From positions 1,054,001 to 1,118,000 of the forward strand of contig JAHQRK010000011.1 in NCBI GenBank assembly GCA_019828595.1: a stretch of DNA of 64,000 nucleotides, given 5' to 3'. Below, in pieces: positions 1 to 14,186 of this stretch (the stretch's first letter is position 1; the number at the start of each line of letters is the position of its first letter). Source of the stretch: Aphanomyces cochlioides. Its lineage: Eukaryota; Oomycota; Saprolegniomycetes; Saprolegniales; Verrucalvaceae. The notes under the pieces are model-generated. The model ran no database searches, was not told where the DNA came from, and worked only from the letters and a program-made list of their open reading frames with translations. Made by a program: the position numbers and the translations under genes.

Positions 1-1
1 A

Positions 2-1731
2 TTCGATTTAACTATCCAACATTTAGATGAAGAATTAAAAAAGCAGCAATATTCTTGTAGTCATTGTAAATGTGCTTTAAATAAAGAAAACGTATCAGCT
101 GATAGAATCAACAACAAAATTGGGCATATTGATGGTAATATTACAATGACTTGCATTAGTTGTAATGTTGCTCGTAAAGATATGAATATGGCTAGTTTCA
201 GAAGAATGAAGTTGATTGAATATAATTCTCATCGTTTAGTATATGAGATTGATGAAGAAAACAAGGATATTTTCTACAAGATGAAACAAAACATTGCAGG
301 TGGGCCTTCTATCATATTCAAGAGATTCGCTAAAAGAAATGAAACATATATAAGAAACGGATCTAAGATTTGTAAGAAAGTAATTGGATTCGATGCGAAC
401 GCTTTATATCTTTGGGCTCTTGGAAATGATATGCCTTGTGGTAGATTAACGATGATTGATATTTACGACAATATCATTGAAGATATTAAATCGGATAAGC
501 TGTTTGGATTTCTTGAATGCGATATTGAGACCCCTGATCACCTAAAAGAACACTTTTCAGAAATGTGTCCGATATTTAAAAATGCCTCTATTATTCCAGA
601 GAAGGAGATTATTGGAGATCATATGTACGAATTTAACCAATCTCTTGAAATGAATAGTAGAAGAAAAGAGTCAAGGAAATTGATTTCAAGCTACTTTGGA
701 GTTAAAATTCTAGTCTATACACCGTTGTTAAAATGGTATTTAGAGCATGGTTTAGTCATTACAAAAATGTATTCATTCATTAAGGCTAGTAGATTTCAAC
801 CATTCAAGGAATTTGAAAACGAAGTATCAAACGCTCGAAGAGGAGGAGATCGGGAAGAAAGTGAAAGACAGGAAAAATATAATGATTGGCAATATAAATC
901 GATAAAAGCTGAAACGATGAAACTTATTGGTAATTCCGCTTTTGGACGCAGTGGAATGGATAAATCAAAGCATAAAGAGGTTGAATATCATAGTGATGAT
1001 AGTAATTTAGATAAACTAATTGAATCAAATAGATTTTACGATCTTGTTGAATTAAATGGATCTTATGAGATAACTAAAGTAAAACGCCGCATAAAAATGA
1101 ACAATCCTATTCATCTAAGTATCGCGATTTATCAGCTTGCTAAATTACGTATGCTTGAATTCTATTATGATTGTGTGGATAAATATATTGATCGTAGCGA
1201 CTTTGAGTATTTAGAAATGGACACAGATAGTGCTTACATTGCTTTTAGCGATGAAGAACCATTCAAAAATCTAATCAAGCCAGAGATGAAAGAACATTTC
1301 GAGAATCATAAATTTGATTGGTTTCCGAGAGATGATACAAAAGAAAATGCAGCTTTTGATAAACGTAAACCAGGACTTTTCAAAGAAGAATATCGATGCA
1401 ATGCTATGATTTCTTTGGCCTCGAAGAATTATATTTGCTATCTACCTGATGAAGTCTATTCGAAAAAAGACAAAAAAATGATAACGCCAAAGATTAAACT
1501 CTCAGCTAAAGGATTCAAAAGGGTCGAAACAAAGACTTGCTTCAACCAGAGCGATTTGAAGATATCATCAAAAATAAAATTACTCTGAAAGGTTCTAATA
1601 CAGGATTTCGAATGGATAAGGAAACAAATACGATGATCACATATAAGACATTTAAAAATGCGTGTAGTTATTATTATGATAAACGAAAAGTTCTTGAAGA
1701 TGGCATACAAACAATACCACTAGATATATAG
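2..1731 (+). CDS. Protein-primed family B DNA polymerase, 5' partial, frameshifted near the C-terminus
   Basis: Open from position 2, so the N-terminal exonuclease part lies outside the window. The first 60 codons hold a zinc/HNH-like motif (CSHC ... GHIDGN ... CISCN) resembling the recombination endonuclease VII fold. Then come the polymerase motifs: motif A GFDANALYLWAL (nt 385-420), motif B KLIGNSAFG (nt 919-945) and catalytic motif C DTDS (nt 1219-1230). The frame breaks near 1525-1540 beside a short A run; the family-typical C-terminus with YDKRKVLEDG and a PLDI end continues in another frame to 1731. The role would be viral genome replication with terminal-protein priming. One missing base, either real decay or a sequencing error, explains the break. 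Confidence 0.88.
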
Positions 1732-1751
1732 ACGAATATTTTAAAGCTGTA

Positions 1752-2846
1752 ATGACAGAACGAGATCTAAGATCGAGAGATCGTTTGATTTCAAAATTAT
1801 ATAATGATCCTTCAACTGGGTTCATATCAGCTGATAAGTTATATATTAAAGCCAAAAAAATTAATCCTGAGATAACCCTAAAGCAAATAAAAGAATGGTA
1901 CGCTAAACAGGATATTGTTCAACAACATCAAACTACAAATAAATCAAAAGAATACTTTAAAATCGCAAGTAATAATCCTGATTCTTGGCAAATGGATTTA
2001 ATGTTTTTCGGTTCCAAAACAGTGTTTATCGCCGTGAATATTAATTCAAGAATTGGTTTTGCTAGGGTTTTAGATAATAAAAGAGCTGAAACAATAATAA
2101 AGGCATTAGATAAATTTATTAAAGAGAGTAATGTTCAAATAATCACGAGCGACAATGGGAGCGAGTTTATATCGAATGCAGTAGAGAATTTCTTAAAAAA
2201 GAATCAAATTGAGCATTACAATAATGAGGTAGGTGATCACGCAGTGCTAGGAAAAATCGATCGGTTTATTAGGACTATCAAACAACGATTAATTAAAATT
2301 AACCCGAAAACATTAACACAGAAACTGATAAATTCAGTTATTAGCAACTATAATAACACTTACCACAGCTCTATAGGAAGTACACCAAATGAAAATAAAG
2401 GTCAAATTATCGATTCAGAGTTAAAACACAACGATAATTTGCTTAAAGATATATCGAAGAAATTCGAAATTGGAGATCACGTTAGATATAGATTAGAAAA
2501 AGGGACTTTTGATAAAGAAAAAAAAGCTCAATGGTCTAAAGCTGTCTACGAAATTATTGGGCTAGATGGATACAAATTCGAACTTAGATCAAAAAATAAA
2601 CATATACTTTACAAATCACCAAATGATTTAAAGGTTGTTCAAGCTAAAATCACTGATGCTGAGACTGGAAACAACGATATTTTTGAAGCTAAAGATATCT
2701 TGGATCATAGAAAAGTTAAAAATGGTTTCAAATACCTAGTTAAATGGTCTGATGGTAGCGAATCATGGGAACCTCAGAAAAACCTTAGATTGATCAATAA
2801 AAACAAAAGATCAACGTTAGAGAATATTTATTTTAGTAAAGAGTAA
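1752..2846 (+). CDS. Retroviral-type integrase with C-terminal chromodomain
   Basis: Intact 364-residue ORF 20 bp after the polymerase. An rve (RNase H-like) catalytic core is clear: first Asp in WQMDLMFFG (about residue 79), second Asp in ITSDNGSEF (about 135), and third acidic residue in VLGKIDRFIRTIKQR (about 173). That third residue is Asp where retroviral integrases have Glu; as far as I recall this variant is common in Maverick integrases. The last 55 residues form a chromodomain (FKYLVKWSDGSESWEP). The enzyme would insert the viral genome into host DNA, with the chromodomain possibly steering it to marked chromatin. Confidence 0.92.
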   Translation: MTERDLRSRDRLISKLYNDPSTGFISADKLYIKAKKINPEITLKQIKEWYAKQDIVQQHQTTNKSKEYFKIASNNPDSWQMDLMFFGSKTVFIAVNINSRIGFARVLDNKRAETIIKALDKFIKESNVQIITSDNGSEFISNAVENFLKKNQIEHYNNEVGDHAVLGKIDRFIRTIKQRLIKINPKTLTQKLINSVISNYNNTYHSSIGSTPNENKGQIIDSELKHNDNLLKDISKKFEIGDHVRYRLEKGTFDKEKKAQWSKAVYEIIGLDGYKFELRSKNKHILYKSPNDLKVVQAKITDAETGNNDIFEAKDILDHRKVKNGFKYLVKWSDGSESWEPQKNLRLINKNKRSTLENIYFSKE

Positions 2847-2875
2847 ACTAATATTTTGGTATTTATATAGTAACG

Positions 2876-3469
2876 ATGTTTCCTTCTTACAAATCTCTCA
2901 AAGATAAGCGCGAAAAGCTAAAAGCTTATTACGATCAAATCAAATATGATGAAGAAATTGATAATTTAAAGAAACAAGCATATGCAAATGCTTATTTCAG
3001 CGATCAACAAGGAGTCAATTTAGATAATTCGTATCAATATCCTCAGGCTATGAAATTAGTAAAAATTGCTCCAGAATCAAAATATCAAACAAAATCAGCT
3101 ATTAAGACAGAAGCAGGGGTTCAAGCAAATGTTAAAACAAATAACAAATTTGATCCATTGATAACTCAATATGAAGAGGAAGAATTAGAAGAAAAACCTC
3201 CAGCTCCTAAACCATCTCCAAAATCATCACCATCTACGTTGAAAAAAAAAAACATACAAGCAAGAAAAGACATTATAGATGATTATAAAGATGAAATAAA
3301 AGGTAAAATCTTAATCCCTAAAAAGATAAATCCAATCTTTCAAAATGGATCTAAAGACAATTTGCACTATATTGGGGCGGAAGGTAAAATTTATAAAGCA
3401 TTTGGCGATGAATTAGTGACAATTAATGGTATTCAATCAAAATATGATTGGATTGAAACAAAAAATTAA
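2876..3469 (+). CDS. Polinton hypothetical protein, N-terminal part
   Basis: 197 codons, rich in Lys, Glu and Pro, starting at ATG 2876 just after a TTTATATA box. The middle (about residues 100-125) is a Pro/Ser/Lys linker; no catalytic motif is visible. The frame ends at TAA 3469 and an open frame shifted by one base starts at once, so this is probably the first half of one longer protein whose second half is 3471-4117. I do not recognise a function. Its place between integrase and the small basic protein would suit a virion or DNA-binding protein, but that is inference. Confidence 0.6.
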   Translation: MFPSYKSLKDKREKLKAYYDQIKYDEEIDNLKKQAYANAYFSDQQGVNLDNSYQYPQAMKLVKIAPESKYQTKSAIKTEAGVQANVKTNNKFDPLITQYEEEELEEKPPAPKPSPKSSPSTLKKKNIQARKDIIDDYKDEIKGKILIPKKINPIFQNGSKDNLHYIGAEGKIYKAFGDELVTINGIQSKYDWIETKN

Positions 3470-3470
3470 A

Positions 3471-4117
3471 TTGACAAAGTTCTAGACGAAGAAAAAAATG
3501 CAAACAACGCAGCTAAAGCATTAAAAGGTCTTACAATAAACTCTACTTCTCCTAAATCAGAGATACCAATTAAGAAGGAAGAAGGAACAGGTTTTAGCAA
3601 AATCTTTACTCGGAAACGTAGATTAGTAGGAAGAGGTTTAGTTGGTGCTGGCAATCATAATCTAGAAAAAGACTATCTTTATAAACAAATTGGAGATAAG
3701 TATATCACTCTAAGCGCTTTAGCTGAAGGCTATTTGAGCTTACGATATCCAAGCGCTAATGTTTGTTTTAAAAGATTCAAAATATCGGATGATTTGGTTA
3801 GTATCATTAAAACTCTCGCATTTGATAAAACGGTAGACTATACTGCTTATGCTCAGCTAAATAATTCCGATAAAGAAATATTTTATGATCTATTGAAATT
3901 TTGTAAAATTTTGCAAACGCTTAGAAAACCTCTTTTTGATCCTCGCCAAGGTCTAGATAAATATAAAGCTGAATTTGATAAATTATTAGCTGAATTGAAG
4001 CTTGGAAATGATAATCCAAAAGTCAAATCTGAACTGAAGAAAATGTCAATATATCTTTTTCAAAACAATCAAATTGGAGAAAAAGATTTCAATAAAATTA
4101 TCAGCCAATTAATATAG
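3471..4117 (+). CDS. Polinton hypothetical protein, probable C-terminal half of the preceding gene
   Basis: Open frame of about 215 codons with no ATG near its 5' end, in the frame next to the preceding ORF. It includes RKRRLVGRGLVGAGNH and a compact region (KYITLSALAEGYLSLRYPSA, then ISDDLVSIIKTLAFD) of the kind that recurs in Polinton hypothetical proteins. The lack of an initiator and the immediate junction suggest that a single-base change near 3,465, in an A-rich run, split one gene of about 410 codons. An alternative is translation from a TTG at 3734. Function unknown. Confidence 0.55.
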
Positions 4118-4127
4118 CAAGTATACA

Positions 4128-4316
4128 ATGACAATATTCAATGTAAAAAGACCGCTAAACGACTATAATAAGAAAGCTAAAGAAAATGAACAAAAATTAA
4201 TTCAAACAATGGAAGATTTAGTCATAGAACATCATCATCCTGAGCCAGTTTTTCAGAATTCCAGAAAACCATTTAGTGATTATAAAAAAAAGAAGCCAAC
4301 AACATTTTCGTTGTAA
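4128..4316 (+). CDS. Small Polinton hypothetical protein
   Basis: 62 codons from ATG 4128, 10 bp after the preceding stop, ending at 4316. Lys- and Pro-rich, hydrophilic, with two similar segments (RPLNDYNKKAK and RKPFSDYKKKKP), a short internal repeat of the pattern RP/KP-x-x-DYxKK. No domain recognised. Reality as a gene rests on the tight spacing and the codon use matching its neighbours. Confidence 0.5.
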   Translation: MTIFNVKRPLNDYNKKAKENEQKLIQTMEDLVIEHHHPEPVFQNSRKPFSDYKKKKPTTFSL

Positions 4317-4369
4317 AATGATATATTATTTATTTCCTAATACATAGTATATAATAAAACACATTCATC

Positions 4370-4858
4370 ATGAAACATCCAAGTGGCTACAAAATTGTAA
4401 AAGTTGGTTCAATTTCTAAGAAAAAGCTTCATAAAGCTATGAAAGGAGGAACTATAATGTTGACTAAAGATGAAGTATCAGGTGAAACGCCTGTTTTATT
4501 ACATCCTGAATCCGTACGAAAAATTCAAGCTGCTAAAAAGGCTAACAAAGGGGTTCGTCTGGATATTACTCATGGAGAAATTCAACATGATTTAGCACAT
4601 CACGCCGGAGGATCTATCTGGGACTCGATTAAACAAGGACTTTCTACCGTTTGGTCATACGTAAAACCAGTTGTTAGCGGAATCGGTGATGCTATCGCCT
4701 ATAGCAATCCAGAACTTGCCCCATTGCGTGAAGGCGTAAGAAATATTGTTGGTGTTGGTTTGAAGCCTAAAAAAGGTACCGATGCTGCCAAGGATATGAT
4801 GAAAGCTGTTCGTTCTAAGAGAAAAAGCAAAGTTGGAGCATCATTTCTCCTTGCATAA
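4370..4858 (+). CDS. Small basic virion-type protein (pX/pVI-like)
   Basis: 162 codons. The layout is a basic N-terminus with a GGTIML segment (residues 26-31), a middle with VRLDITHGEIQHD, then HHAGGSIWDSIKQGLSTVW, an amphipathic segment around residues 77-105, and a very basic tail (KAVRSKRKSKVG). Small basic proteins with a Gly-Gly-aromatic amphipathic helix are typical of Polinton/adintovirus virions and resemble adenovirus core or membrane-active proteins. Assignment is by architecture, not by a catalytic motif. A TATA-like AT-rich leader precedes the ATG. Confidence 0.55.
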   Translation: MKHPSGYKIVKVGSISKKKLHKAMKGGTIMLTKDEVSGETPVLLHPESVRKIQAAKKANKGVRLDITHGEIQHDLAHHAGGSIWDSIKQGLSTVWSYVKPVVSGIGDAIAYSNPELAPLREGVRNIVGVGLKPKKGTDAAKDMMKAVRSKRKSKVGASFLLA

Positions 4859-4876
4859 ATATATAAACAAACAAAA

Positions 4877-5062
4877 ATGTTCTTTAACTATCAATTAATC
4901 AAAAAAAGTAAAGAGATGCATGAAGCTCAATTAAAAAGGCATTCGAACTACATTAATAAGGATGAGATTATGTGTCAAACATGCAATATCAAACTAAAAA
5001 AATGGAACAAAAGATGCCATTCTCAATCATTTGCACATTTATTAAATGTTTCATACCTTTAA
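4877..5062 (+). CDS. Small CxxC/His protein, unknown
   Basis: 61 codons from ATG 4877 after a TATATAAA box. A possible zinc-binding group is visible: CQTCNIKLKKWNKRCHSQSF, with Cys-x2-Cys and a later Cys-His and His. It ends 3 bp before the end of the convergent minor capsid gene. No function recognised. Confidence 0.45.
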   Translation: MFFNYQLIKKSKEMHEAQLKRHSNYINKDEIMCQTCNIKLKKWNKRCHSQSFAHLLNVSYL

Positions 5063-5064
5063 CT

Positions 5065-5934
5065 TTAATTAGTTAATTTTTTTCTTATCAATAATTGAAT
5101 AACAATTTGATTATCTTGGAATTTTACAAAACGACCAAACTGATCCGTGATTATAATTTCAATGTATGATTTAGTTTGATCAGGAATATCAATCCAAGCA
5201 AATTGATTAACTTTCACATCGATTGATTGACCAATCGTCGTTCCGCCGGAACTGAACGAAAACAAAATATCAGGAGGTTGACTATAAATATTATTTACCA
5301 AATTACATCGAATTAAATAACAACTCACTGGGTTGATTTGAGGAGTAATATTAGAAAGAATGCTTTGAGATGTTGTCGTTTGAGCTGATGGATAAGTTCC
5401 AACTGAAAAACCAACAATTGAGTTAAAATTAGCAGGAAACACTATTTGAGGAGCATAAGCGGTTGAAGGCAATCCTGTTCCACTTAAAGAATATAATCCA
5501 GAACTTGGTCTAGTATATGATGCAGGTAAGCTTGTAGGGGTGCTTAAAAGATCTACTTGGCAACTATAATAGGTAGAATTAGCTTGCATTTTGATATAGA
5601 AAACATTGTTTCCACTTCCATCGATCAAATATGCTCCAGCGGCAATTAATTTTGATTGAATATAATTATTTAAATCCAAATATGAGTAATATCCATTTGG
5701 TAAAGTTATATTGATTGTAGATGTGGTAGAACCTGTTGGAACAATAATAGAAAAAGTATTATTTCCATATTCAACGTCATTGATATTGAATTGACTGTTA
5801 AACATTTTAACTGATGCTAACGCTACTTCTCTATTTTGAAAATTAGCAGCTCCAGTCGGAATGTCAAATCGAAATGTATTGTTATAACCATTATTTTGGA
5901 CATGTTTCGAGCTTAAAGTAATCAAAGATGCCAT
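5065..5934 (-). CDS. Minor capsid (penton-type) protein
   Basis: 289 residues, starting MASLITLSSKHV on the minus strand. It is rich in beta-strand residues, Ser, Thr and Asn, with the pattern LPNGYYSYLDLNNYIQSKL (about residues 80-98) followed by YYSCQVDLL, which I associate with the single jelly-roll minor capsid proteins of Polinton-like viruses. It lies directly beside the packaging ATPase, as is common in these viruses. It would form the capsid vertices. A TTTATATA box lies about 20 nt before the start. Jelly-roll fold is inferred from pattern only. Confidence 0.75.
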   Translation of the reverse strand: MASLITLSSKHVQNNGYNNTFRFDIPTGAANFQNREVALASVKMFNSQFNINDVEYGNNTFSIIVPTGSTTSTINITLPNGYYSYLDLNNYIQSKLIAAGAYLIDGSGNNVFYIKMQANSTYYSCQVDLLSTPTSLPASYTRPSSGLYSLSGTGLPSTAYAPQIVFPANFNSIVGFSVGTYPSAQTTTSQSILSNITPQINPVSCYLIRCNLVNNIYSQPPDILFSFSSGGTTIGQSIDVKVNQFAWIDIPDQTKSYIEIIITDQFGRFVKFQDNQIVIQLLIRKKLTN

Positions 5935-5974
5935 AATTGCTCTAATAAATTACGTATATAAATGCTGAGATATA

Positions 5975-6649
5975 TTATTCCATCCCATTATGTAATATTT
6001 TTTTCCAATTATATCGTACTGTTTGATCAATAGTATTTAGTAAAATCATTTGACCTTTCTGTTTCAAAATCATTTGATAATAACCCCATAGCTGATCAAC
6101 AGTAACTCCTGCTATAGGCATATCTTTAAGTATCATTCGTAAATCTGTTTTCGATGGTGTTCTTAGCAAAAACAAAATTTCTGAATTCAAACGAACCATT
6201 TTCGGACAACCTTTGAAAAAGGCGTGAGCTAAAAATAACGTTGTCAAACCTTTATGCCTTCCGCGAATAAAGAAAGGAACGACATGTTTTTCACACCATT
6301 TTTGATCATTACTCCAATCGTCAAAAATTACAAGTTGCAATCCGTCTTTCTGAATATCATCAACACTTGGAACAGTTTCCTCATCGTAAATAGTGCAAAA
6401 GGTATCCAATTTGTCTTTTAAATATCTGTACAGAGGCTGATCAGGCTGTCTAGCAATTAAATGCAAATGTGAATATACATTTGGTGATTTTTTTACAAAA
6501 TCAAAAATTAAATTGCTTTTTCCGCTTCCACTTGCTCCTAGAACAATTCCTCTAAAAAGTTTTGGTAAATTTGTTTGTTTGTTAAACCCTGAATTATCCG
6601 ATTGATAAGCTTTTGGAAGAGCAGCTCCCCAATTAGGAATTGTTTCCAT
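5975..6649 (-). CDS. Genome-packaging ATPase, FtsK/HerA (A32) type
   Basis: 224 residues. Walker A is GASGSGKSNLIFDF (about residues 38-51); Walker B is LQLVIFDDW (about residues 105-113). The downstream RGRHKGLTTLFLAHAFF segment is the sensor/arginine region seen in A32-like packaging ATPases. This enzyme would pump the viral genome into the capsid. Transcribed with the minor capsid gene from the minus strand, 40 bp upstream of it; its start is 36 bp from the divergent fibre gene, so the two share one promoter region. Confidence 0.92.
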   Translation of the reverse strand: METIPNWGAALPKAYQSDNSGFNKQTNLPKLFRGIVLGASGSGKSNLIFDFVKKSPNVYSHLHLIARQPDQPLYRYLKDKLDTFCTIYDEETVPSVDDIQKDGLQLVIFDDWSNDQKWCEKHVVPFFIRGRHKGLTTLFLAHAFFKGCPKMVRLNSEILFLLRTPSKTDLRMILKDMPIAGVTVDQLWGYYQMILKQKGQMILLNTIDQTVRYNWKKILHNGME

Positions 6650-6685
6650 CTTTTTTATTAGGTATTATATATTAGATCAAAAAGA
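6650..6685. promoter_or_regulatory. Divergent promoter between packaging ATPase and fibre gene
   Basis: Only 36 bp separate two divergent start codons. The stretch is almost pure A/T and contains GGTATTATATATTAG, a TATA-like core readable on either strand. Such short shared AT boxes occur before most genes of this element. Confidence 0.5.
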
Positions 6686-8902
6686 ATGTCTAATTCTGTT
6701 TATAATCCAAATAATTATTATGATCCATCGTCTGGATTGACACAGAATGCTGCTGACCAACTATACTTATCAAAATCTGACATTCGTTTACCTCAAATAA
6801 CATCAATTTCAGCTGGAGCTGCTTCAGCTAGTAAAGCTTTAGTTCTTGATGCAAGTAAAAACATATCAGGTATAAATAGTTTTTCAGCAAGCAGCATTAC
6901 GCCAAATATAACAGATTCAGCTAATGGATCAATATCGACTCCGTTTGCCGTTACGCATACATTATCTTCAGGTAGTCCTACTAATAATGGATTTGGAATT
7001 GCTATGACTTTTAACGGCCCAAATCAAATAAACAATATAATTAGTTATGGCAGAATTTACTCAACTTGTCAATTACAAACGTCAGGCCTTCATCAAGGTT
7101 CTTTGACTCTATCAAGTGTTTTTGCTGGAAATTTTGTGGATGTAATGACAATATCAACTTTGACTAGTACTAATAATAATTCAGTCGCTATTGCAGGTAA
7201 TAATAGTATTTTAAGCGTGACAAATGTTAGTTCTACTAATTTAACAGGAACTCTACAAACTGCTTCTCAACCAAATATAAATTCATTAGGATCTTCAAAT
7301 TTATCTATTGCTGGAACAACAAGTTTTACAAATACAAGCTCTTCCAATATATCGACTTCAAACTCAGTTCAGTTTGCGGGTGGCGCGTATATTGGAAAAA
7401 ATTTATTATTGAATGGTTGGCACTCAAATAACGCTCAATTCACAGGATCAAACCATATATCTTCAGCATCAGGTGGAGTGTCATTATACGATAATCCAAT
7501 TTATTTCAGAGGACAAGCTGGAAACGATAGTAACCATGGAATAATGTACAGCGGAAATGGAAATTCATCTTGGAATAGTAATAATGGTTGGGGAAACAGC
7601 TCTACATATTCCGTAGATGGACCAGTGCTCTGGGGTAATCAAGGAGTCATTTTAGGAAATTTAAATAGCAATGGAACTGAAACAATTTGTGCAACGTTTT
7701 CAGGAACAACAACGCTTCTAAATGGTAAATTAAACGTTAATACGCCAACAACAACTAATAGTCAAGTCAATATTCAATCTTTTGGTTCAGCTTTAGCTTT
7801 CACATATGATGCTAATCATTATACAAATTTCAATAGCCAATCTGATGGGACATTTAGTTTTACTCTTAATTCATTACAATCCACACCAACATATTTGCAA
7901 TATTATTTTGGATCACCAAATTACTGGACTTTACCAGCATTTTCATTAGCTGGTGGTTCGCCGAGATTTAGACTTGATCTAGGGGCTGGAAATGGTGGAG
8001 GACCTTCTGATATTCAAATCTGTTTATATAATCCTTCCAATATTACGCCAACAAGCGGCTGGGGCTTCAACAACAGCGCTCTTCAGCATATATCATCTGG
8101 ATCAAATGGACATAGATTTTATAGTTCGTATTCATTATCTGGGACAGGTGCTCAAACAGGCCTTGGAACGTTGATTGGTCAAATTGATCAATTTGGGAAT
8201 ATCAAAGCCCAGGCGGGTTTTCGATGTGTTGGATGCAATCCGTTAGGATATTCGGGAGGAGGAGCTGAAATCGAATATATTAACTCAACAGCTCATTTCT
8301 TTGGTTATAATCGAACAACGCTTTTGCAAACGGCTGTTCAACTTGGGGATGGGGTTTATGTTACTGCCCTTGGAGCTACTGGTATTGGGACACAAAACAC
8401 CAGTCAATATCCTTTGGAAGTAGGCTATAGCTCGCAAACAATTACAGGTAGCTATGGTTATCTTAACTCGTCTGGTAATGTTGGTTCATTAACTAATTCG
8501 GGATCGCAAAATTTCTCAGCAAAATTCAATGGACGCATAAACGTTGCTTTAGAAATTGACGTCAGTTCGGATAGACGTATTAAAGATGATATTAGAAATA
8601 TCAGTGAAGAAGAAGCAACAAATTTTGTCAAAAAAATTAGTCCTGTTTTCTATAAATTGAAAGCTGATAATTCTGAATCCTATGGATATATTGCTCAAGA
8701 TATGCTAAAAGCTGGTGTAGATAGATTGATTCAAACACATCGTCAAGAAATAGATGAAACTATTGATGATGATGGTTTTGTGAGCCCTAAAGATGTCATA
8801 TTTACGATTGCTTATCAGAAGATCTGTTGCTTGTTGCATAAATATATACTTTTGCAAGATGATAGAATTTCATCTCTTGAAAAAAAATTAGAAGAGCTCT
8901 AA
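6686..8902 (+). CDS. Fibre-like protein with C-terminal S74 intramolecular chaperone domain
   Basis: 738 residues. The first 600 are low-complexity, Ser/Thr/Asn/Gly-rich and beta-repeat-like with little charge, as in viral fibres and tail spikes. The C-terminus (about 625-738) is a peptidase S74 domain: SSDRRIKDDIRNISEEEA gives the catalytic Ser-Asp start, followed by YGYIAQDMLKAGV and a terminal coiled coil (DDRISSLEKKLEEL). Known S74 domains help a trimeric spike fold and then cut themselves off at the Ser. This would be the host-attachment fibre. The gene converges on the major capsid gene across a hairpin-rich spacer. Confidence 0.85.
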   Translation: MSNSVYNPNNYYDPSSGLTQNAADQLYLSKSDIRLPQITSISAGAASASKALVLDASKNISGINSFSASSITPNITDSANGSISTPFAVTHTLSSGSPTNNGFGIAMTFNGPNQINNIISYGRIYSTCQLQTSGLHQGSLTLSSVFAGNFVDVMTISTLTSTNNNSVAIAGNNSILSVTNVSSTNLTGTLQTASQPNINSLGSSNLSIAGTTSFTNTSSSNISTSNSVQFAGGAYIGKNLLLNGWHSNNAQFTGSNHISSASGGVSLYDNPIYFRGQAGNDSNHGIMYSGNGNSSWNSNNGWGNSSTYSVDGPVLWGNQGVILGNLNSNGTETICATFSGTTTLLNGKLNVNTPTTTNSQVNIQSFGSALAFTYDANHYTNFNSQSDGTFSFTLNSLQSTPTYLQYYFGSPNYWTLPAFSLAGGSPRFRLDLGAGNGGGPSDIQICLYNPSNITPTSGWGFNNSALQHISSGSNGHRFYSSYSLSGTGAQTGLGTLIGQIDQFGNIKAQAGFRCVGCNPLGYSGGGAEIEYINSTAHFFGYNRTTLLQTAVQLGDGVYVTALGATGIGTQNTSQYPLEVGYSSQTITGSYGYLNSSGNVGSLTNSGSQNFSAKFNGRINVALEIDVSSDRRIKDDIRNISEEEATNFVKKISPVFYKLKADNSESYGYIAQDMLKAGVDRLIQTHRQEIDETIDDDGFVSPKDVIFTIAYQKICCLLHKYILLQDDRISSLEKKLEEL

Positions 8903-8925
8903 GAGCATCTGATTAGGTAAGTTAT

Positions 8926-9148
8926 CTGTAGGCAGAGCCGCAAGATAAACTTGCGCCTCTACAAGTCTGAAGGACTTGGGGGCGCGAGCCACCGAGTCCA
9001 AGGACTCCCCAGCTTGCTGGGCCATAGTATTAAATAGATTTTTTTGTTCACTTTGGTGTAGATGCAAGCTATTTGCTTGTGGAAAGCAACCGAAGGTTGC
9101 GGACAATCTCTGATGTCGTTTATGCCTACAGCAAAGAGCTCGCTCTTT
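8926..9148. repeat. Array of seven short hairpins between convergent viral genes
   Basis: Perfect inverted repeats with tiny loops lie one after another: 8939-8955 (CGCAAG/CTTGCG), 8962-8978 (CAAGTC/GACTTG), 8994-9007 (GAGTCC/GGACTC), 9008-9021 (CCCAGC/GCTGGG), 9065-9079 (CAAGC/GCTTG), 9086-9100 (GCAACC/GGTTGC) and 9133-9148 (AAAGAGC/GCTCTTT). An outer pair (CTGTAGGCA at 8926-8934, TGCCTACAG at 9123-9131) encloses most of them. The last hairpin touches the major capsid stop codon. The spacer has more G/C than the genes around it. A likely role is transcript 3'-end formation for both convergent genes; that is inference. Confidence 0.75.
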
Positions 9149-10948
9149 TTAACTTAACATTTCAACTTCTCCTGTTAAACGGTTAAGATTGAATTCACGT
9201 TCGTAGACGACTAAAGCAAGTAGATTTGCGCCTTGCGAGCAACCGTTGATACCAGAAATGGTTACGGCTTGTGGAACGTCTTTTTGAGTGATTCGAGAGC
9301 AGTCAGCAACAAGAACTCGATTCACAGTGCTCCAAGTTTGGAAATCGATCAAACCATTAGCAATTTCGTGGGTTAGTCCACCATTAATTGCGTGTAATTT
9401 AGAGAATTCATCATAGAAAGATTGGTAATCATAGGTTACAGTTTCATTGAAAACTGTTTCAGATCCGATTTGAACTTGGAAGTGGCGAATACTACTTCCT
9501 GGTTGACAAGTGTAAGGAGCTGAATCAAAGGGACTTGCAAATTGCTCTACATTAGTAGCAGTTACATAATGTCCTGATGATGTTTCGCTAAATGGAATCA
9601 ATGCAATATATTTAATATTCTTCCAAGAACCAGATAAAGTCAAATTGATTGGAACATTCATTTGACCATCAATTGCTCCAAGACCAGCTCGTCCTTGAAA
9701 ATATTGAGCATAACAGTCTAAGAAACGAATAGTCTTGATTGGTCTTTGTACAATTTCAGTTGGGCGTGCTAGATCATAAAATGGAACATTGAGGCGAGCA
9801 GTTGTGTATGGGACAATGCTTCCTGTTTGTGCAACAGTGCATAGACTATTTTGAACTGGACCGAATGCTACTCGAAACGTAGCTGCTTTCGAAGCTGCGA
9901 GAATACCAGTCATGGGGTTATAAGCATTACCTGAAGCTACCATAATTGGGCACGTTCTACCGCTTGTAAGTACTGAAGATTTTAATTTCATTGTGTAGTT
10001 TGGTGGAGAAGCTGCATCGGTAGCTGCATCTATATCAACATATCCAGAGTTGATTTTAAGACGTAATTTGAGCTGAGGGTTACCCGTTAATTCTAATTCA
10101 TTGAAGATAGGATGGAGATCGATCAAACGGATTTTCAACATGTGAACCCAATGTCCTGCATATGCCCCTGCTGCAACTGTTCCAGTATTATTAAGAGCAA
10201 AAGCACCACGAGCATTTTGCTGTGCGATTGTTGAACTAACGCTTGCGCGTTGGGTTAGCCAATTAAAGGCGTTGATACCTCCATTAACACTACCTGTAGT
10301 TGGATCAATTGTCGCTACACTTTGAGGATTAGAATAAATACGAGAGATAAATCCATTGTTTTCTGCTAAAGGTGCCTCCTGAAGTGTCAAACCAGTAGTA
10401 GCTGCTGGATTGCAGACCGTATTGTAAAAACCATCTCCCCCTGCTGAAGCTGCTGGTGTTCCAGAGGATCCACCATAATTCATCGAGTACCAACTATCTG
10501 GAAAATGAAGCGCATCGGCCCCATGTTTTAGCTGGTCGCTAGCGCTCCATCCTGTTTGATGGCGCAAATTATTCCAAAACAATTTGTAATCTGCTTCAGT
10601 AACTATATCAGTTCCATTTAAAGTAACAGTGAGCGAGTCAACTACGTTCCAAACGCCAGCCTTCATGCCAACACAATATCGATTAATTGCTTTAGCAAAT
10701 GCATCGGAACCTAAATTTTTCATAGTCACTACGTATGGTAAAGTAATGTAAGCATCTTTCAAAGAAGCAAAACCTTTAGAACCTTGAAGTTGAGAAGCGG
10801 CGTCGATTGTGATAATACCTGACGAATAACTACCTTGATTGTTATCCGGAACATATGCCATTTTCTTACCTCGAGAGACTTCTACAGGAGCATCTTCTCT
10901 TTTGGAAGCATCAAGTAAATATTGATCAGCCAGTTGGTAGTCAGCCAT
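9149..10948 (-). CDS. Major capsid protein, double jelly-roll type
   Basis: 599 residues, intact, starting MADYQLADQYLLDASKRED. Length, composition and order of segments fit Polinton/Polinton-like virus major capsid proteins: an N-terminal region with YITLPYVVTMKN (about residues 88-99), WNVVDSLTVTLNG, a long middle, then KIRLIDLHPIFNELELTGNP (about 271-290) and a C-terminal half with YDYQSFYDEFSKLHAI. These proteins trimerise into pseudo-hexameric capsomers. It is transcribed toward the fibre gene, and its start is 71 bp from the divergent protease gene. Confidence 0.85.
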   Translation of the reverse strand: MADYQLADQYLLDASKREDAPVEVSRGKKMAYVPDNNQGSYSSGIITIDAASQLQGSKGFASLKDAYITLPYVVTMKNLGSDAFAKAINRYCVGMKAGVWNVVDSLTVTLNGTDIVTEADYKLFWNNLRHQTGWSASDQLKHGADALHFPDSWYSMNYGGSSGTPAASAGGDGFYNTVCNPAATTGLTLQEAPLAENNGFISRIYSNPQSVATIDPTTGSVNGGINAFNWLTQRASVSSTIAQQNARGAFALNNTGTVAAGAYAGHWVHMLKIRLIDLHPIFNELELTGNPQLKLRLKINSGYVDIDAATDAASPPNYTMKLKSSVLTSGRTCPIMVASGNAYNPMTGILAASKAATFRVAFGPVQNSLCTVAQTGSIVPYTTARLNVPFYDLARPTEIVQRPIKTIRFLDCYAQYFQGRAGLGAIDGQMNVPINLTLSGSWKNIKYIALIPFSETSSGHYVTATNVEQFASPFDSAPYTCQPGSSIRHFQVQIGSETVFNETVTYDYQSFYDEFSKLHAINGGLTHEIANGLIDFQTWSTVNRVLVADCSRITQKDVPQAVTISGINGCSQGANLLALVVYEREFNLNRLTGEVEMLS

Positions 10949-11019
10949 GATTGTTTATATTATTTTATAGACTTATATATACTTCTATTGAGACAAAAAA
11001 TAGAAAAAAATATTAATGA
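10949..11019. promoter_or_regulatory. Divergent promoter between major capsid and protease genes
   Basis: 71 bp of nearly pure A/T between two divergent start codons. It contains TTATATATACTT and TTTATATTATTTTATAG, giving TATA-like boxes toward both genes, and an A-rich leader (GACAAAAAATAGAAAAAAAT) before the protease ATG. Confidence 0.5.
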
Positions 11020-11397
11020 ATGGATCTAATAAAAGGAATTACCTCTGATCACGAATTAATTGAATTAGCTAATTTATTAGATATTGAATTGGATGGAATA
11101 TTTACTCTTGATGAAATAAAGAAACCATTACCAAAAAACGGAAATTATATTATTTTGTTAGAAAATGGTGATGGAATTGGACATTGGGTAGGTATTTTCC
11201 ATGATCAGTATTTTGACAGCGCAGGTGAACCAGCTCCTCTTATTTTAGGTATAAAAAAATACAACCATAAGCAGTATCAAAGTGCTTATAGAGAGTATTG
11301 TGGCATTTGGTGTTTATTATTCCTATATTCTAAACAAAATCACAGTCCTGATCTACTCGAAGGATTTCATGATCTGAATGATAAAACGTTTGAGTAA
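11020..11397 (+). CDS. Adenain-like (C5/Ulp1-type) maturation cysteine protease
   Basis: 125 residues. The catalytic pattern is readable in order: His in GIGHWVGIF (about residue 54), Asp in QYFDSAGEP (about 66), Gln in YNHKQYQS (about 86) and Cys in EYCGIWCLLF (about 97). This order matches adenovirus protease and Polinton PRO genes. It would cut capsid precursor proteins during virion maturation. The protein is short but includes every catalytic residue. It ends 5 bp before the convergent ExoX-C-like gene. Confidence 0.87.
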   Translation: MDLIKGITSDHELIELANLLDIELDGIFTLDEIKKPLPKNGNYIILLENGDGIGHWVGIFHDQYFDSAGEPAPLILGIKKYNHKQYQSAYREYCGIWCLLFLYSKQNHSPDLLEGFHDLNDKTFE

Positions 11398-11402
11398 GTA
11401 GA

Positions 11403-11729
11403 TTAAACCTCTTTTGGTTGGTTTTTTAGGTTAATTAGTTCATCGTATAGTTTTAAACACTTTTCTTTAACGTATTGATTAGTTAATAACCAATCAATGT
11501 ATTGAGAATCGATTTGATTGATATGTTGTATAGATTTGCCTTTATATTTGCCCCATGTCATTGTATAGCTAAGATCAGCATCTTTGAATTTATCTTGTAG
11601 GAACTGTTTGATTTCTGGACGAGAACTAAGGATCATCTCCTGAGTTAGCAACCATTTACAATATGATTGATTAATATCAAAAACTTCTTGAATAGTTTTT
11701 GATTTATATCGTCCGAAATTTAATTCCAT
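11403..11729 (-). CDS. Small protein of two ExoX-C-like repeats
   Basis: 108 residues made of two copies of one motif: NFGRYKSKTIQEVFDINQSY-CKWLL at residues 4-28 and TWGKYKGKSIQHINQIDSQY-IDWLL at about 58-82. The pattern (aromatic-GKYKGK-x-I ... Y-x-x-WLL) is that of the C-terminal module found with exonuclease X and in stand-alone viral proteins, thought to bind nucleic acid. No nuclease domain is attached. It is the last recognisable gene of the viral element on this side. Confidence 0.6.
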   Translation of the reverse strand: MELNFGRYKSKTIQEVFDINQSYCKWLLTQEMILSSRPEIKQFLQDKFKDADLSYTMTWGKYKGKSIQHINQIDSQYIDWLLTNQYVKEKCLKLYDELINLKNQPKEV

Positions 11730-11882
11730 GGTTACTAAATACTATACACCATATACTACGTAGTGGTTTTTTTAAATTAATTATACGAAATTTTATAGTA
11801 GCGATTAAATTTTCTATATTATTATTTTATACAGGTATATTATTTTTCAAAGTGGTTTAACGACGAACGTCCATTTCCGAAT
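11730..11882. other. Right edge of the viral element and junction to host DNA
   Basis: AT-rich sequence with no ORF. The word AGTGGTTT occurs at about 11,761 and again at about 11,851, but I cannot show that it is a terminal repeat. From about 11,865 composition becomes host-like and the Crinkler start codon follows at 11883. The exact end of the element needs the other terminal repeat, which is outside the window. Confidence 0.4.
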
Positions 11883-13103
11883 ATGCTGACTTTGTTCTGC
11901 GTCGTTGTTGGTGAAGGGAGACCTTTCTCCATCGAGATTGAAGCTGAAAAGACCGTCGATCATCTCAAGAAGAAGATCAAAGAAGAAATCAAGTATGATG
12001 GTCGTGCAGATGCTCTTCAGCTTTATCTGGCTTTGAAGGGTGGTTTACAGTTAAAGGATGGTGCTTGGCTGTCTGACGAAGACCCTGATTTGGAAGGCCT
12101 TTCTCAACCCGCTGATGGAAACACAGTGTTTCCAAAGTATGTCAATGAAGAAAGACAGATGAAGGGAACCAAGAAGCTTTCCAGGTTCTTTTCTGGTGGA
12201 GAGTACCCCGAATTTTGCAGCGACGAAAAAATTCATGTGGTGGTTACGGAGCAAGAGGCTCTCGGCGTGGCACCAACTACAACACATCGTCATCCCGAAC
12301 GTCTCAAACGATGGGCTGCGATCAATGCAATCATACGTCAGAAGAATCAACAGGCAAATCAGAAGACCACCGATGAAGACGCCAATACAAACAAAAAACG
12401 AAAAAAACGCGATGTTAACAAGACTGTCGGCTATTCGAGTCTTTGTTGGGAAGATATCAAATCAATTTACAACTTCGAAGATTCTTATGACCTTCAACCT
12501 AACGTTAGCGATATTCCTGATGCTGACATCCAGCTGCTCCTCGCTCGTATTCATGATTTGCGGGATCTCTATGGACAAGTCACGGATGGGAAAGAAGCCA
12601 AGAGATTGTTCTTTATTGCCCCGATCCTTGAGACAGTCAGTCGTCTGATCAAGGACGTCCGCATTTTAGTCGAAGAAGACGTGGCTGGGAAGAACGTGCT
12701 CCTGAATGGTCGATTCGAATTCGTGCTCAAGCGTGGCAAGAAGAGAATTTCACTTGTCGAAGCAAAGCGTGAAGATATGCAACAAGGACTGGTTCAGAGT
12801 GTGACGGGGCTCGAAGCTCTTGCTGATGTTGAAAATCTATCTGTGACATATGGCATCGTGACTAATTTTCTCATGTGGACGTTCGTGATCAGTGAAGACA
12901 CGAAGGCCCGAAAGCATGAGTATTCTCTCCGTACCGTCGAAACCATACCTTCGTTTGAAGGATTGAAAGAACTCGTCGGAATAATTTACGCGATGCTGAT
13001 GCCTTCCATAGAGAAAAAAGTCTGTATTGTGGAGGCGAAGAAGGATGATTTGTTGCAAGGGATGGCTCAAGATTTGTTGGCATGTGAAGTGCAGTCTGAG
13101 TAA
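11883..13103 (+). CDS. Crinkler (CRN)-type effector with PD-(D/E)xK-like nuclease domain
   Basis: 406 residues. The N-terminus is a ubiquitin-like CRN translocation domain: MLTLFCVVVGEGRPFSIEIE, then LQLYLALKGG (LYLA at 47-50, the LFLAK equivalent) and KIHVVVTEQ (about 116-124), equivalent to the HVLVxxP boundary. A linker rich in Lys and Arg follows (NKKRKKRD, possible nuclear signal). The C-terminal part, about residues 278-385, has FEFVLKRGKKRISLVEAK and DMQQGL, the E-x-K core of restriction-nuclease-like CRN domains. CRN proteins act inside other cells, usually in the nucleus. The start codon lies only about 15 bp from the viral AT-rich edge, leaving almost no host promoter. Residues 380 onward begin a second, broken module. 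Confidence 0.85.
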   Translation: MLTLFCVVVGEGRPFSIEIEAEKTVDHLKKKIKEEIKYDGRADALQLYLALKGGLQLKDGAWLSDEDPDLEGLSQPADGNTVFPKYVNEERQMKGTKKLSRFFSGGEYPEFCSDEKIHVVVTEQEALGVAPTTTHRHPERLKRWAAINAIIRQKNQQANQKTTDEDANTNKKRKKRDVNKTVGYSSLCWEDIKSIYNFEDSYDLQPNVSDIPDADIQLLLARIHDLRDLYGQVTDGKEAKRLFFIAPILETVSRLIKDVRILVEEDVAGKNVLLNGRFEFVLKRGKKRISLVEAKREDMQQGLVQSVTGLEALADVENLSVTYGIVTNFLMWTFVISEDTKARKHEYSLRTVETIPSFEGLKELVGIIYAMLMPSIEKKVCIVEAKKDDLLQGMAQDLLACEVQSE

Positions 13104-13273
13104 TGTACGTTTATGGTATCGTCACCAATTATGTTGAATGGAACTTTTAGCGAAACATGAATGACAGAATTGAATTGGAGGGGTGTGCCTTGAATGTTGG
13201 ACCTACTGGCCCTTCTTTGGAAACTCTTGACAAGATTTGTGGAAAGATTTATGCCATGCTTTCGGATGAGTAA
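13015..13273 (+). pseudogene. Second, disrupted copy of the CRN nuclease module
   Basis: The effector frame runs into KKVCIVEAKKDDLLQGMAQD, a second copy of the KKRISLVEAKREDMQQGLVQ motif, then stops at 13101. Reading other frames gives YVYGIVTNYVEWNF (nt about 13,106-13,147; first copy TYGIVTNFLMWTF) and, from 13157, a stretch ending KICGKIYAMLSDE with stop 13271-13273 (first copy ELVGIIYAMLM). So a tandem duplicate of the nuclease half exists, broken by at least one frameshift and a short loss. Confidence 0.65.
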
Positions 13274-13621
13274 GCAGTACGTTGCTGTTTTTTATTAAGT
13301 CAATTTGAGTATTTCTTCGCATATGAGTCCTAAGAGAATACAAGAAATCACCTTCAGGGGTTTGTTTGTGACATCAATTTTGATAGCTTCGCATATGAGT
13401 CATTCGATCGTTTATTAGGCCCCTTCCATGTGTCGAGAATGATTCAACTAATGTCGTGGTTTCATCGTAATCAACTTGTTTGGGTGAATGCTATCATCTG
13501 ATGAAAAGGATGGAAAACCTTGATATAGCATCATCAGACTCAGAATCAGCATACAGATGGGACGATTGGTGGTGGTGAGAACTTTTGAAAAAAAATTGCC
13601 GGTCTGTGGCACTAAGTATTA
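13274..13621. other. Intergenic, no gene seen
   Basis: Host-like composition. The phrase TTCGCATATGAGTC occurs twice (about 13,316 and 13,387). No ORF with recognisable content. Confidence 0.4.
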
Positions 13622-14186
13622 CTACTGAGGTTGCTCAATACATAGATTGTGCAAATCTACAATACTATCAATCAGCATCAAGATTCGAGTCATATCGCTC
13701 TTGCATGCTAATCTATTTCGGATGGAGCACAAAAATGGAAATCGTGCCTTCAAGAGTCCAACACAGTGTTCGGCACGGATTCGAATTCTGGATAAACGTT
13801 GATTGAAGCATGCATACTCGGGAGGCAAGTTTGAACTTGGAGCACATTTATACGCTGGAATAAGGTTTCGACTGGGTGAAAACGCGGAGTCGCCAAGAAT
13901 GTATTCCTTATTCGCAAAGTATGATGCTGGGTCCAGAGCTGGCTTTGAACATTTCCATACTCGATTGTCATGTGATGAACCAGGCCAACCAGCATTAATA
14001 TACCGAATTAAGCATGTGTCGTCGCAAATAAACACCGCATGATGAATTCCTCGAAAAGTAGTCTTCACCAAAGTTAATAGGTTTCACTTCGAATGGAAAC
14101 AATGTGCCATCAATGAAGCCAACACAATTCGGGAAGCCAGATTCCTTCGGCATACTGACGCCTGTGTGGTGTGTTGATCCAGTCAA
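13622..14186 (-). pseudogene. PIF/Harbinger-like DDE transposase remnant
   Basis: Two overlapping minus-strand frames together give a DDE_Tnp_4-type nuclease: NCVGFIDGTLFPFEV (first Asp), then after a frame change RYINAGWPGSSHDNRVW, EYILGDSAFSPSRNLIPAY (second Asp) and RIRAEHCVGLLKARFPFL (Glu). The frame change lies near 14,045-14,070. N-terminal DNA-binding part and the partner Myb-like protein of active Harbinger elements are not visible. No terminal repeats recognised. A dead fragment. Confidence 0.7.

What the first reader, a model, noticed from the sequence alone, without database searches (positions are those of the whole stretch)
1..11870. Endogenous Polinton-like virus with a complete capsid gene set in an oomycete genome
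All morphogenesis genes (major and minor capsid, ATPase, protease, fibre) are open in one 11.9-kb stretch, while polymerase and one unknown gene each show one frame break. That pattern suggests a recent insertion or a provirus able to make particles. Polinton-type viruses of oomycetes are little described as far as I know.
Basis: partly seen in the sequence, partly recalled or inferred. Interest (0 to 1): 0.78.

Follow-up and report, generated by a model that had tools for sequence, protein, structure and literature searches.

The report
Oomycete Polinton virus carrying Crinkler gene
A dormant capsid-coding virus in the genome of a water mould, one of nine sister copies, carries inside its ends a gene of the Crinkler effector family, and this cargo gene is shuffled and swapped between otherwise closely similar virus copies.

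Summary
It is a 17,382-bp Polinton: 266-bp terminal inverted repeats (250/266 identical), a perfect 6-bp target duplication, integrase, packaging ATPase and a double-jelly-roll capsid protein, inserted in a Harbinger-type transposase gene. It extends 3.8 kb left of the window and 1.76 kb past the stated right edge. That missed right end holds a Crinkler (CRN, PF20147) effector gene inside the repeats. The host is Aphanomyces cochlioides. Nine copies exist, each with its own 6-bp duplication; 9 of 9 have a CRN header in the same slot, with at least three different continuations. A second Polinton family (61% identical capsid protein, unrelated repeats, 19 repeat-bounded elements) carries a CRN-type NTPase-nuclease gene in that slot. 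Capsid genes are nearly identical between most copies while the cargo is divergent and recombined (family 2: median silent divergence 0.097 against 0.004). Oomycete Polintons are known, and Polinton repeats beside CRN genes were noted in Phytophthora sojae. A conserved, hypervariable CRN cassette inside capsid-coding Polintons I did not find in the open-licence literature searched. What the cargo does is inferred, not shown.

The parts
1..1588 (+). Middle/C-terminal piece of a family-B-like DNA polymerase (broken in this copy; the gene begins left of the window), with an HNH-like stretch at its start
   Evidence: Open frame; motifs FDANALYLW, KLIGNSAFG and MDTDS in order (motif meaning recalled); no Pfam match; HNH/endonuclease VII match
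1752..2846 (+). Integrase (rve) with C-terminal chromodomain
   Evidence: PF00665 9.7e-13, PF00385 4.9e-7, both over the cut-off
2876..3469 (+). Unknown open frame
   Evidence: no family
3734..4117 (+). Unknown open frame
   Evidence: no family over cut-off
4370..4858 (+). Small protein of the morphogenesis block, function unknown
   Evidence: no Pfam family
5065..5934 (-). Candidate minor capsid protein (by position only)
   Evidence: no family over cut-off
5975..6649 (-). Packaging ATPase (A32/FtsK type)
   Evidence: PF04665 1.1e-7, over cut-off
6686..8902 (+). Fibre-like protein with S74 intramolecular chaperone
   Evidence: PF13884 1.1e-9, over cut-off
9149..10948 (-). Double jelly-roll major capsid protein
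   Evidence: AlphaFold model pLDDT 82; best Foldseek hits mavirus MCP 6g45 E 4e-12 and Sputnik 3j26; 140 homologues at E <= 0.001, candidates capped
11020..11397 (+). Candidate adenain/Ulp1-type cysteine protease
   Evidence: H-D-C pattern by eye (recalled); no Pfam match
11403..11729 (-). Protein with two ExoX-like C-terminal repeats
   Evidence: PF20600 1.1e-18, two stretches
11883..13103 (+). Cargo: Crinkler (CRN) effector gene, ubiquitin-like header plus predicted PD-(D/E)XK nuclease
   Evidence: PF20147 1.8e-21; model pLDDT 83 with ubiquitin-like and weak MGME1/Cas4 matches; header in the same slot in 9 of 9 copies
13104..13285 (+). Leftover of a second CRN nuclease module after the stop codon
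   Evidence: Read by eye against CRN rows
13361..13626 (.). Right terminal inverted repeat; its partner is C3:1050245-1050510, left of the window
   Evidence: 250/266 identical
13627..13632 (.). 6-bp target-site duplication GAGGTT
   Evidence: Same six bases outside the left repeat, L002:5939-5944
13633..14071 (-). Interrupted gene at the insertion site: Harbinger-type (DDE_Tnp_4) transposase; its C-terminal tail lies beyond the left repeat
   Evidence: PF13359 2.7e-22; joined flanks read through in one frame; relative uninterrupted across the junction at C78:2538908, 72%

Best explanation
The feature is an integrated Polinton virus of Aphanomyces cochlioides that carries a CRN-type effector gene as a standing accessory cassette between its capsid-side genes and its right terminal repeat. 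Shown: repeats, target duplications, capsid protein fold, integrase, a CRN header in the same slot of nine of nine sister copies, a different CRN-type gene in the same slot of a second Polinton family, and recombination in the cargo against near-uniform capsid genes. Inferred: the virus inserts by its integrase, replicates by its own polymerase, and moves the cassette as part of its genome; cassettes are exchanged by homologous recombination between co-resident viruses and perhaps with host CRN genes. Inferred, and less sure (about 0.4): the CRN protein is a nuclear nuclease working for the virus inside the oomycete cell, against rival viruses or mobile DNA, which would explain why variety is kept. 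The main alternatives are that it serves the host as an ordinary plant-directed effector or is passively carried.
For: CRN lies inside matched repeats with a 6-bp duplication. 9 of 9 family-1 elements have a PF20147 header in the slot, 0.30 expected if 150 headers fell at random. 22 of 33 family-2 capsid places have a CRN-type gene in the slot (the 33 sorted by me); 19 elements are bounded by paired repeats and 10 of 10 tested have perfect 6-bp duplications. All 12 family-2 cargo exons tested (of 20 full-length) have no stop; median dN/dS 0.54. Median dS over 66 pairs: cargo 0.097, capsid gene 0.0038; family 1: CRN dS 0.015-0.19, capsid 0-0.024. PHI-type test 0 of 500 permutations in both families, Rmin 12 and 7. 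C3 versus C18, window 7,651-12,448: at least 0.996 identical per 300-bp block through fibre part, capsid and protease, 0.865 at the CRN header, then 1.000 and 0.986. Cargo GC3 0.44-0.47 against 0.19-0.26 for the other viral genes measured. Phytophthora oleae capsid protein V7S43_015460 and CRN V7S43_015462 sit on one 361,767-bp contig.
Against: Most CRN headers are not in these elements: of 150 scored, by eye from the coordinates, 9 lie in family-1 elements, 1 in a family-2 slot and 1 beside a divergent capsid remnant. 11 of 33 family-2 capsid places, 9 of them broken or in pieces, have no cargo match, and the 77% family (C45) shows no CRN in 5 kb beyond the slot. The family-2 cargo lacks the PF20147 header; its CRN kinship rests on weak matches and one named relative. 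The left end of family 1 also varies (79-99.9% identity), and two family-2 elements have capsid genes 0.06-0.17 apart from the rest at silent sites, so cargo is not the only variable part. Viral-contig scans with the capsid protein, its alignment, the CRN alignment and the ATPase found nothing; the family-2 cargo was not scanned. No expression, secretion or activity data. dN/dS near 0.5 also fits weak constraint.
Confidence: 0.78

Rival explanations
1. Passive capture: an ancestor of each family trapped a host CRN gene near its end; the gene hitch-hikes and has no role for the virus. Its diversity is host CRN diversity brought in by gene conversion with the host's many CRN genes.
For: The genome holds at least 150 CRN headers, most outside these elements, as possible donors; cargo composition is nearer the host's; the window CRN has a leftover of a second CRN module behind it.
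Against: Two families with unrelated repeats and unlike polymerases both hold CRN-type genes in the same slot; 12 of 12 tested cargo frames are open and median dN/dS is 0.54; the closest near-full-length CRN outside the elements that one search lists (102 of 175 candidates scored) is 60% identical.
Confidence: 0.3
2. The capsid backbone, not the cargo, is special: gene conversion between copies has homogenised the backbone while cargo and ends kept their older divergence.
For: Left ends and repeats also differ between copies while capsid genes are alike; repeats within one element differ by up to 9%, more than the capsid genes of different copies.
Against: In family 2 the 662 bp just beyond the cargo, repeat included, are 97-100% identical in 18 of the 19 other copies, 87% in one, so conversion would have to skip little but the cargo; different duplications show separate insertions.
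Confidence: 0.2
3. The CRN gene was inserted into the finished provirus later and independently, as ordinary CRN expansion in repeat-rich DNA.
For: CRN genes in Phytophthora sojae often have Polinton repeats within 2 kb (63 duplicated CRN genes, PMC3726527 passage).
Against: CRN header in the same slot in nine independent insertions, each with its own duplication outside the repeats.
Confidence: 0.02
4. Plain Polinton transposon or contaminant chimera.
For: Polymerase broken in this copy.
Against: Clean insertion into a transposase gene with a relative uninterrupted across the junction; 2.6-Mb contig; many copies in one genome.
Confidence: 0.02

Closest known systems
Gossevirus-group Polinton-like viruses / Polintons of oomycetes (PMC7805220, PMC10120064)
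   Same: Host group, integrated form with terminal repeats and duplications, pPolB plus RVE in some, cysteine protease in many, double-jelly-roll capsid protein without BLAST similarity to virophages (passages; section 7 of PMC7805220)
   Different: The words crinkl, CRN, effector and NTPase do not occur in the main text of PMC7805220; crinkl, effector and cargo do not occur in that of PMC10120064. Supplements not seen. Group membership by sequence could not be tested here
CRN (Crinkler) / CR (Crinkler-RHS) effectors (PMC5289972, one section read; Zhang et al. 2016 itself not held)
   Same: PF20147 header, ubiquitin-like fold, nuclease-type C-terminus, modular exchange of C-termini
   Different: Here the gene is part of a capsid-coding integrated virus, inside its repeats
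Polinton repeats beside duplicated CRN genes in Phytophthora sojae (PMC3726527, passages)
   Same: Polinton-CRN neighbourhood in another oomycete
   Different: There: masked repeats within 2-kb flanks, read as an aid to duplication. Here: the gene's place inside repeat-bounded elements
Phage morons and polymorphic toxin cassettes (recalled)
   Same: Works like: accessory gene near one genome end, host-like composition, swapped between close relatives
   Different: Eukaryotic virus, effector of another family; analogy only

Membership tests
Polinton/Maverick (defining features recalled) | Terminal inverted repeats of 100 bp or more beginning 5'-AG | tested here: met
   266 bp, AGTAGT ends; nine paired copies
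Polinton/Maverick (defining features recalled) | 6-bp target-site duplication | tested here: met
   9 of 9 family 1; 10 of 10 tested of 19 family 2
Polinton/Maverick (defining features recalled) | Retroviral-type integrase | tested here: met
   PF00665 over cut-off
Polinton/Maverick (defining features recalled) | Protein-primed family-B polymerase | tested here: inconclusive
   Window piece shows motifs A-B-C in order but no Pfam match at E 10; family 2 matches PF03175 over cut-off
Polinton/Maverick (defining features recalled) | Packaging ATPase | tested here: met
   PF04665
Polinton/Maverick (defining features recalled) | Double jelly-roll major capsid protein | tested here: met
   Foldseek to mavirus MCP E 4e-12, TM 0.44 by query length, whole-chain rmsd 11.6
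Polinton/Maverick (defining features recalled) | Cysteine protease and minor capsid protein | tested here: inconclusive
   No family match; names rest on position and pattern
Gossevirus group | MCP of clusters 57-61 (PMC10120064) / PC_0014 (PMC7805220) | not testable with these tools
   Reference sequences not on hand; named homologues listed are from oomycetes, and oomycete MCPs are said to be restricted to this group
CRN effector (family-1 cargo) | PF20147 header over cut-off | tested here: met
   Window 77 bits, cut-off 24.6; 9 of 9 copies
CRN effector (family-1 cargo) | Translocation into plant cells, effector activity | not testable with these tools
   No expression or assay data
CRN/CR effector (family-2 cargo) | PF20147 header | tested here: not met
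   No PF20147 in exon 2 of C17; three CRN headers gave no tblastn match in L053, which holds the exon-1 region. Hence called CRN-type, not CRN
CRN/CR effector (family-2 cargo) | P-loop NTPase plus REase-type nuclease | tested here: inconclusive
   GTPG/GIGKS Walker A split by an intron, and a D...FQ(I/M)T pattern, by eye in A3 (meaning recalled); relative named Crinkler (CRN) family in Thraustotheca

The most novel reading that the evidence does not exclude
Capsid-coding Polinton viruses are the vehicles on which CRN effectors are diversified and passed between oomycetes: a viral pan-cassette, selected because the nuclease helps the virus against rivals, from which the pathogens' effector arsenals have been restocked.
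Probability: 0.35. Interest if true: 0.9.

Novelty: new variant of a known kind. Interest (0 to 1): 0.72.

Why it matters
CRN effectors are scattered over distant eukaryotes and reshuffle their C-termini, and the vehicle and driver are open (helitrons and horizontal transfer have been proposed; PMC5289972). An effector gene kept as a swappable cassette inside an integrating virus gives a concrete vehicle and a place where new combinations arise, and makes transfer testable by sequencing.

Tried and rejected
Viral contigs (IMG/VR) gave no relative for the capsid protein alone, its alignment, the CRN alignment or the ATPase: a negative at that tool's sensitivity. PDB sequence searches gave nothing for the capsid protein and only chance-like hits for its profile; the fold search settled it. 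Repeat divergence as an insertion clock was rejected: left repeats of C3 and C2 are 99.6% alike while their right repeats are 91.7% alike, so left-right difference is inherited. GC jump as element edge was rejected. 'The cargo protein simply evolves fast' was rejected because silent sites differ too. For C20 the CRN sits in the slot but no family-2 repeat was found in the 5.4 kb fetched, so I do not call it inside repeats. C10's CRN is broken, with header and later part in different frames.

Counts: I merged split matches by hand into 38 capsid places, leaving out the nine family-1 places; 33 of the 38 are family 2 by identity. One search used 12 of 20 full-length cargo copies and 10 of 19 elements for duplications. 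One search used 7 of 9 CRN copies (C78 and C10 dropped as not alignable over most of the slot) and 7 capsid copies (C7 and C10 dropped as broken). One search aligned the window CRN with 39 of the 120 listed homologues (157 found); the window capsid protein with 34 of the 120 listed (140 found); the cargo with 28 of 53.
Full report
What was claimed and what is there. The window is C3:1054001-1118000 of a 76.2-Mb, 94-contig genome. Protein records whose longest contigs are 781,934 and 2,604,000 bp name Aphanomyces cochlioides, and these are the lengths of contigs C25 and C3. Integrase, ATPase, S74 fibre and ExoX-like proteins are over Pfam cut-offs. The major capsid protein has no Pfam or PDB sequence match, but its model (pLDDT 82) finds mavirus, Sputnik, faustovirus and PRD1 capsid proteins.

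Edges. Extending left gave a 266-bp inverted repeat, L002:5945-6210, matching window 13361-13626 at 250 of 266. Both are flanked outside by GAGGTT. The element is therefore C3:1050245-1067626, 17,382 bp. Joining only the outer flanks gives one Harbinger-type transposase frame across the site, and a relative on C78 is uninterrupted across the junction at 72% identity.

The cargo. Between 11,870 and the repeat lies a 406-aa frame with a Crinkler header (PF20147, 77 bits). Its model has a ubiquitin-like header and a domain with weak matches to MGME1 and Cas4, PD-(D/E)XK nucleases; the two best hits of that search are mitoribosomal proteins with low TM, so the fold call is modest. The alignment of 40 sequences shows conserved FEFVL and V(E/Q)AK motifs, VEAK in the window copy, as expected of such a nuclease (motif meaning recalled). 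The genome has at least 150 CRN headers over the cut-off.

Nine copies. The repeat finds 18 places forming nine pairs. Each pair has a perfect 6-bp duplication, all different (9 of 9). Each has a PF20147 header beside the same repeat (9 of 9). Seven carry the same nuclease type; C78 has a 422-aa CRN that shares the header start and then differs, and C10 has a header followed by yet another, broken continuation. Capsid genes are 99.2-100% identical in DNA among eight copies, while the cargo end of the seven alike copies ranges from 89 to 99%.

A second family. Capsid matches at about 61% form a larger set. A 280-bp repeat, unrelated to the first, bounds 19 elements of 17.2-17.5 kb, and 10 of 10 tested have perfect 6-bp duplications. 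Their polymerase matches PF03175, which finds none of the family-1 copies; a piece of the window polymerase gave no significant alignment to a 1.6-kb piece of one family-2 polymerase (best E 0.43). So the two families share capsid genes and slot but not ends or, it seems, polymerase. In 22 of 33 family-2 capsid places the slot holds a CRN-type gene: 21 an NTPase-nuclease without PF20147 header (20 full-length, one in fragments), and one (C20) a canonical 604-aa CRN. An upstream exon was read in two copies, and an A. euteiches protein that reads across the junction supports the intron (P0241). A divergent capsid remnant on C31 also has a broken CRN nearby. Nine of the 11 places without cargo are broken or in pieces, but two are not.

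Hypervariable cassette. In 12 family-2 elements, median silent divergence is 0.097 in the cargo and 0.0038 in the capsid gene; all 12 cargo exons are open, and median dN/dS is 0.54. Two elements (C17, C45a) have capsid genes 0.06-0.17 away from the rest at silent sites but ordinary cargo, so the histories disagree. In family 1 three copies have no silent capsid difference in 599 codons but differ by 0.07-0.09 in CRN. In the stretch compared (window 7,651-12,448), C3 and C18 differ mainly in the CRN header block (0.865). Site patterns show recombination in both families (0 of 500 permutations). The 662 bp beyond the family-2 cargo are 97-100% alike in 18 of 19 other copies, 87% in one. Against the simple picture: the polymerase-side end of family 1 varies too.

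How it most likely works. Integration by the element's integrase and replication by its polymerase follow from established Polinton biology (recalled). Cassette exchange by homologous recombination is shown as pattern, not as process. For function I favour a nuclear nuclease that the virus uses inside the oomycete cell against rival DNA, because variety is kept at one locus in two unlike viruses, and because a review reports the view that CR proteins first served inter-organism conflict and defence against invasive DNA (PMC5289972). This is about 0.4 likely; service to the host as a plant-directed effector, or passive carriage, are the alternatives. Cargo GC3 of 0.44-0.47 lies between the viral genes (0.19-0.26) and the one host gene measured (0.63), which suggests a host origin of unknown age.

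Other oomycetes. CRN relatives in A. euteiches are 87-88% identical over 93% of the length (up to 98% over part), and one in Phytophthora cactorum, another order, is 82% over 61%. That is suggestive of transfer but untested, with no gene tree. In P. oleae a capsid protein and a CRN have locus tags two apart on one contig. Seven of the 120 listed capsid homologues have longest contigs of 16-17.2 kb, the size of a whole element; their other genes could not be read here.

Known and new. Oomycete Polintons with capsid genes are known, and Polinton repeats near CRN genes were counted in P. sojae. Searches crinkler+polinton, crinkler/virus/maverick (two of three; 20 of 704 listed), crinkler+virophage, crinkler+endogenous vir, oomycete+polinton+effector genes, and polinton-like virus+cargo gene+effector listed no paper whose title, abstract start or the passages I opened (PMC3726527, PMC8204020) place CRN inside such elements. 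I saw listings and passages, not whole texts, and the library holds open-licence papers only, so this is no proof. I rate it a new variant of a known kind.

Noticed in passing
window 2-230: HNH/endonuclease VII-like stretch embedded in the polymerase gene (phrog_1035 4.9e-8), perhaps a selfish insert.
   Followed up: no
G000 C25:685-776 kb, C28, C88, C90: Dense repeated arrays of CRN headers, possibly subtelomeric; possible donors of cassette pieces.
   Followed up: no
G000 C56:1776069-1779423: The only dUTPase match reported lies beside CRN-like fragments; a viral neighbourhood is possible.
   Followed up: no
L002:6210-7710: Polymerase-side first gene region is a second variable end between family-1 copies, 79-99.9% identity.
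   Followed up: partly
G000 C45:1623574-1625349: Capsid gene 77% identical to the window's, slot without CRN but with two unknown frames.
   Followed up: partly
L002:1-3604: Two tandem copies of a host gene with a proline/threonine-rich linker.
   Followed up: no
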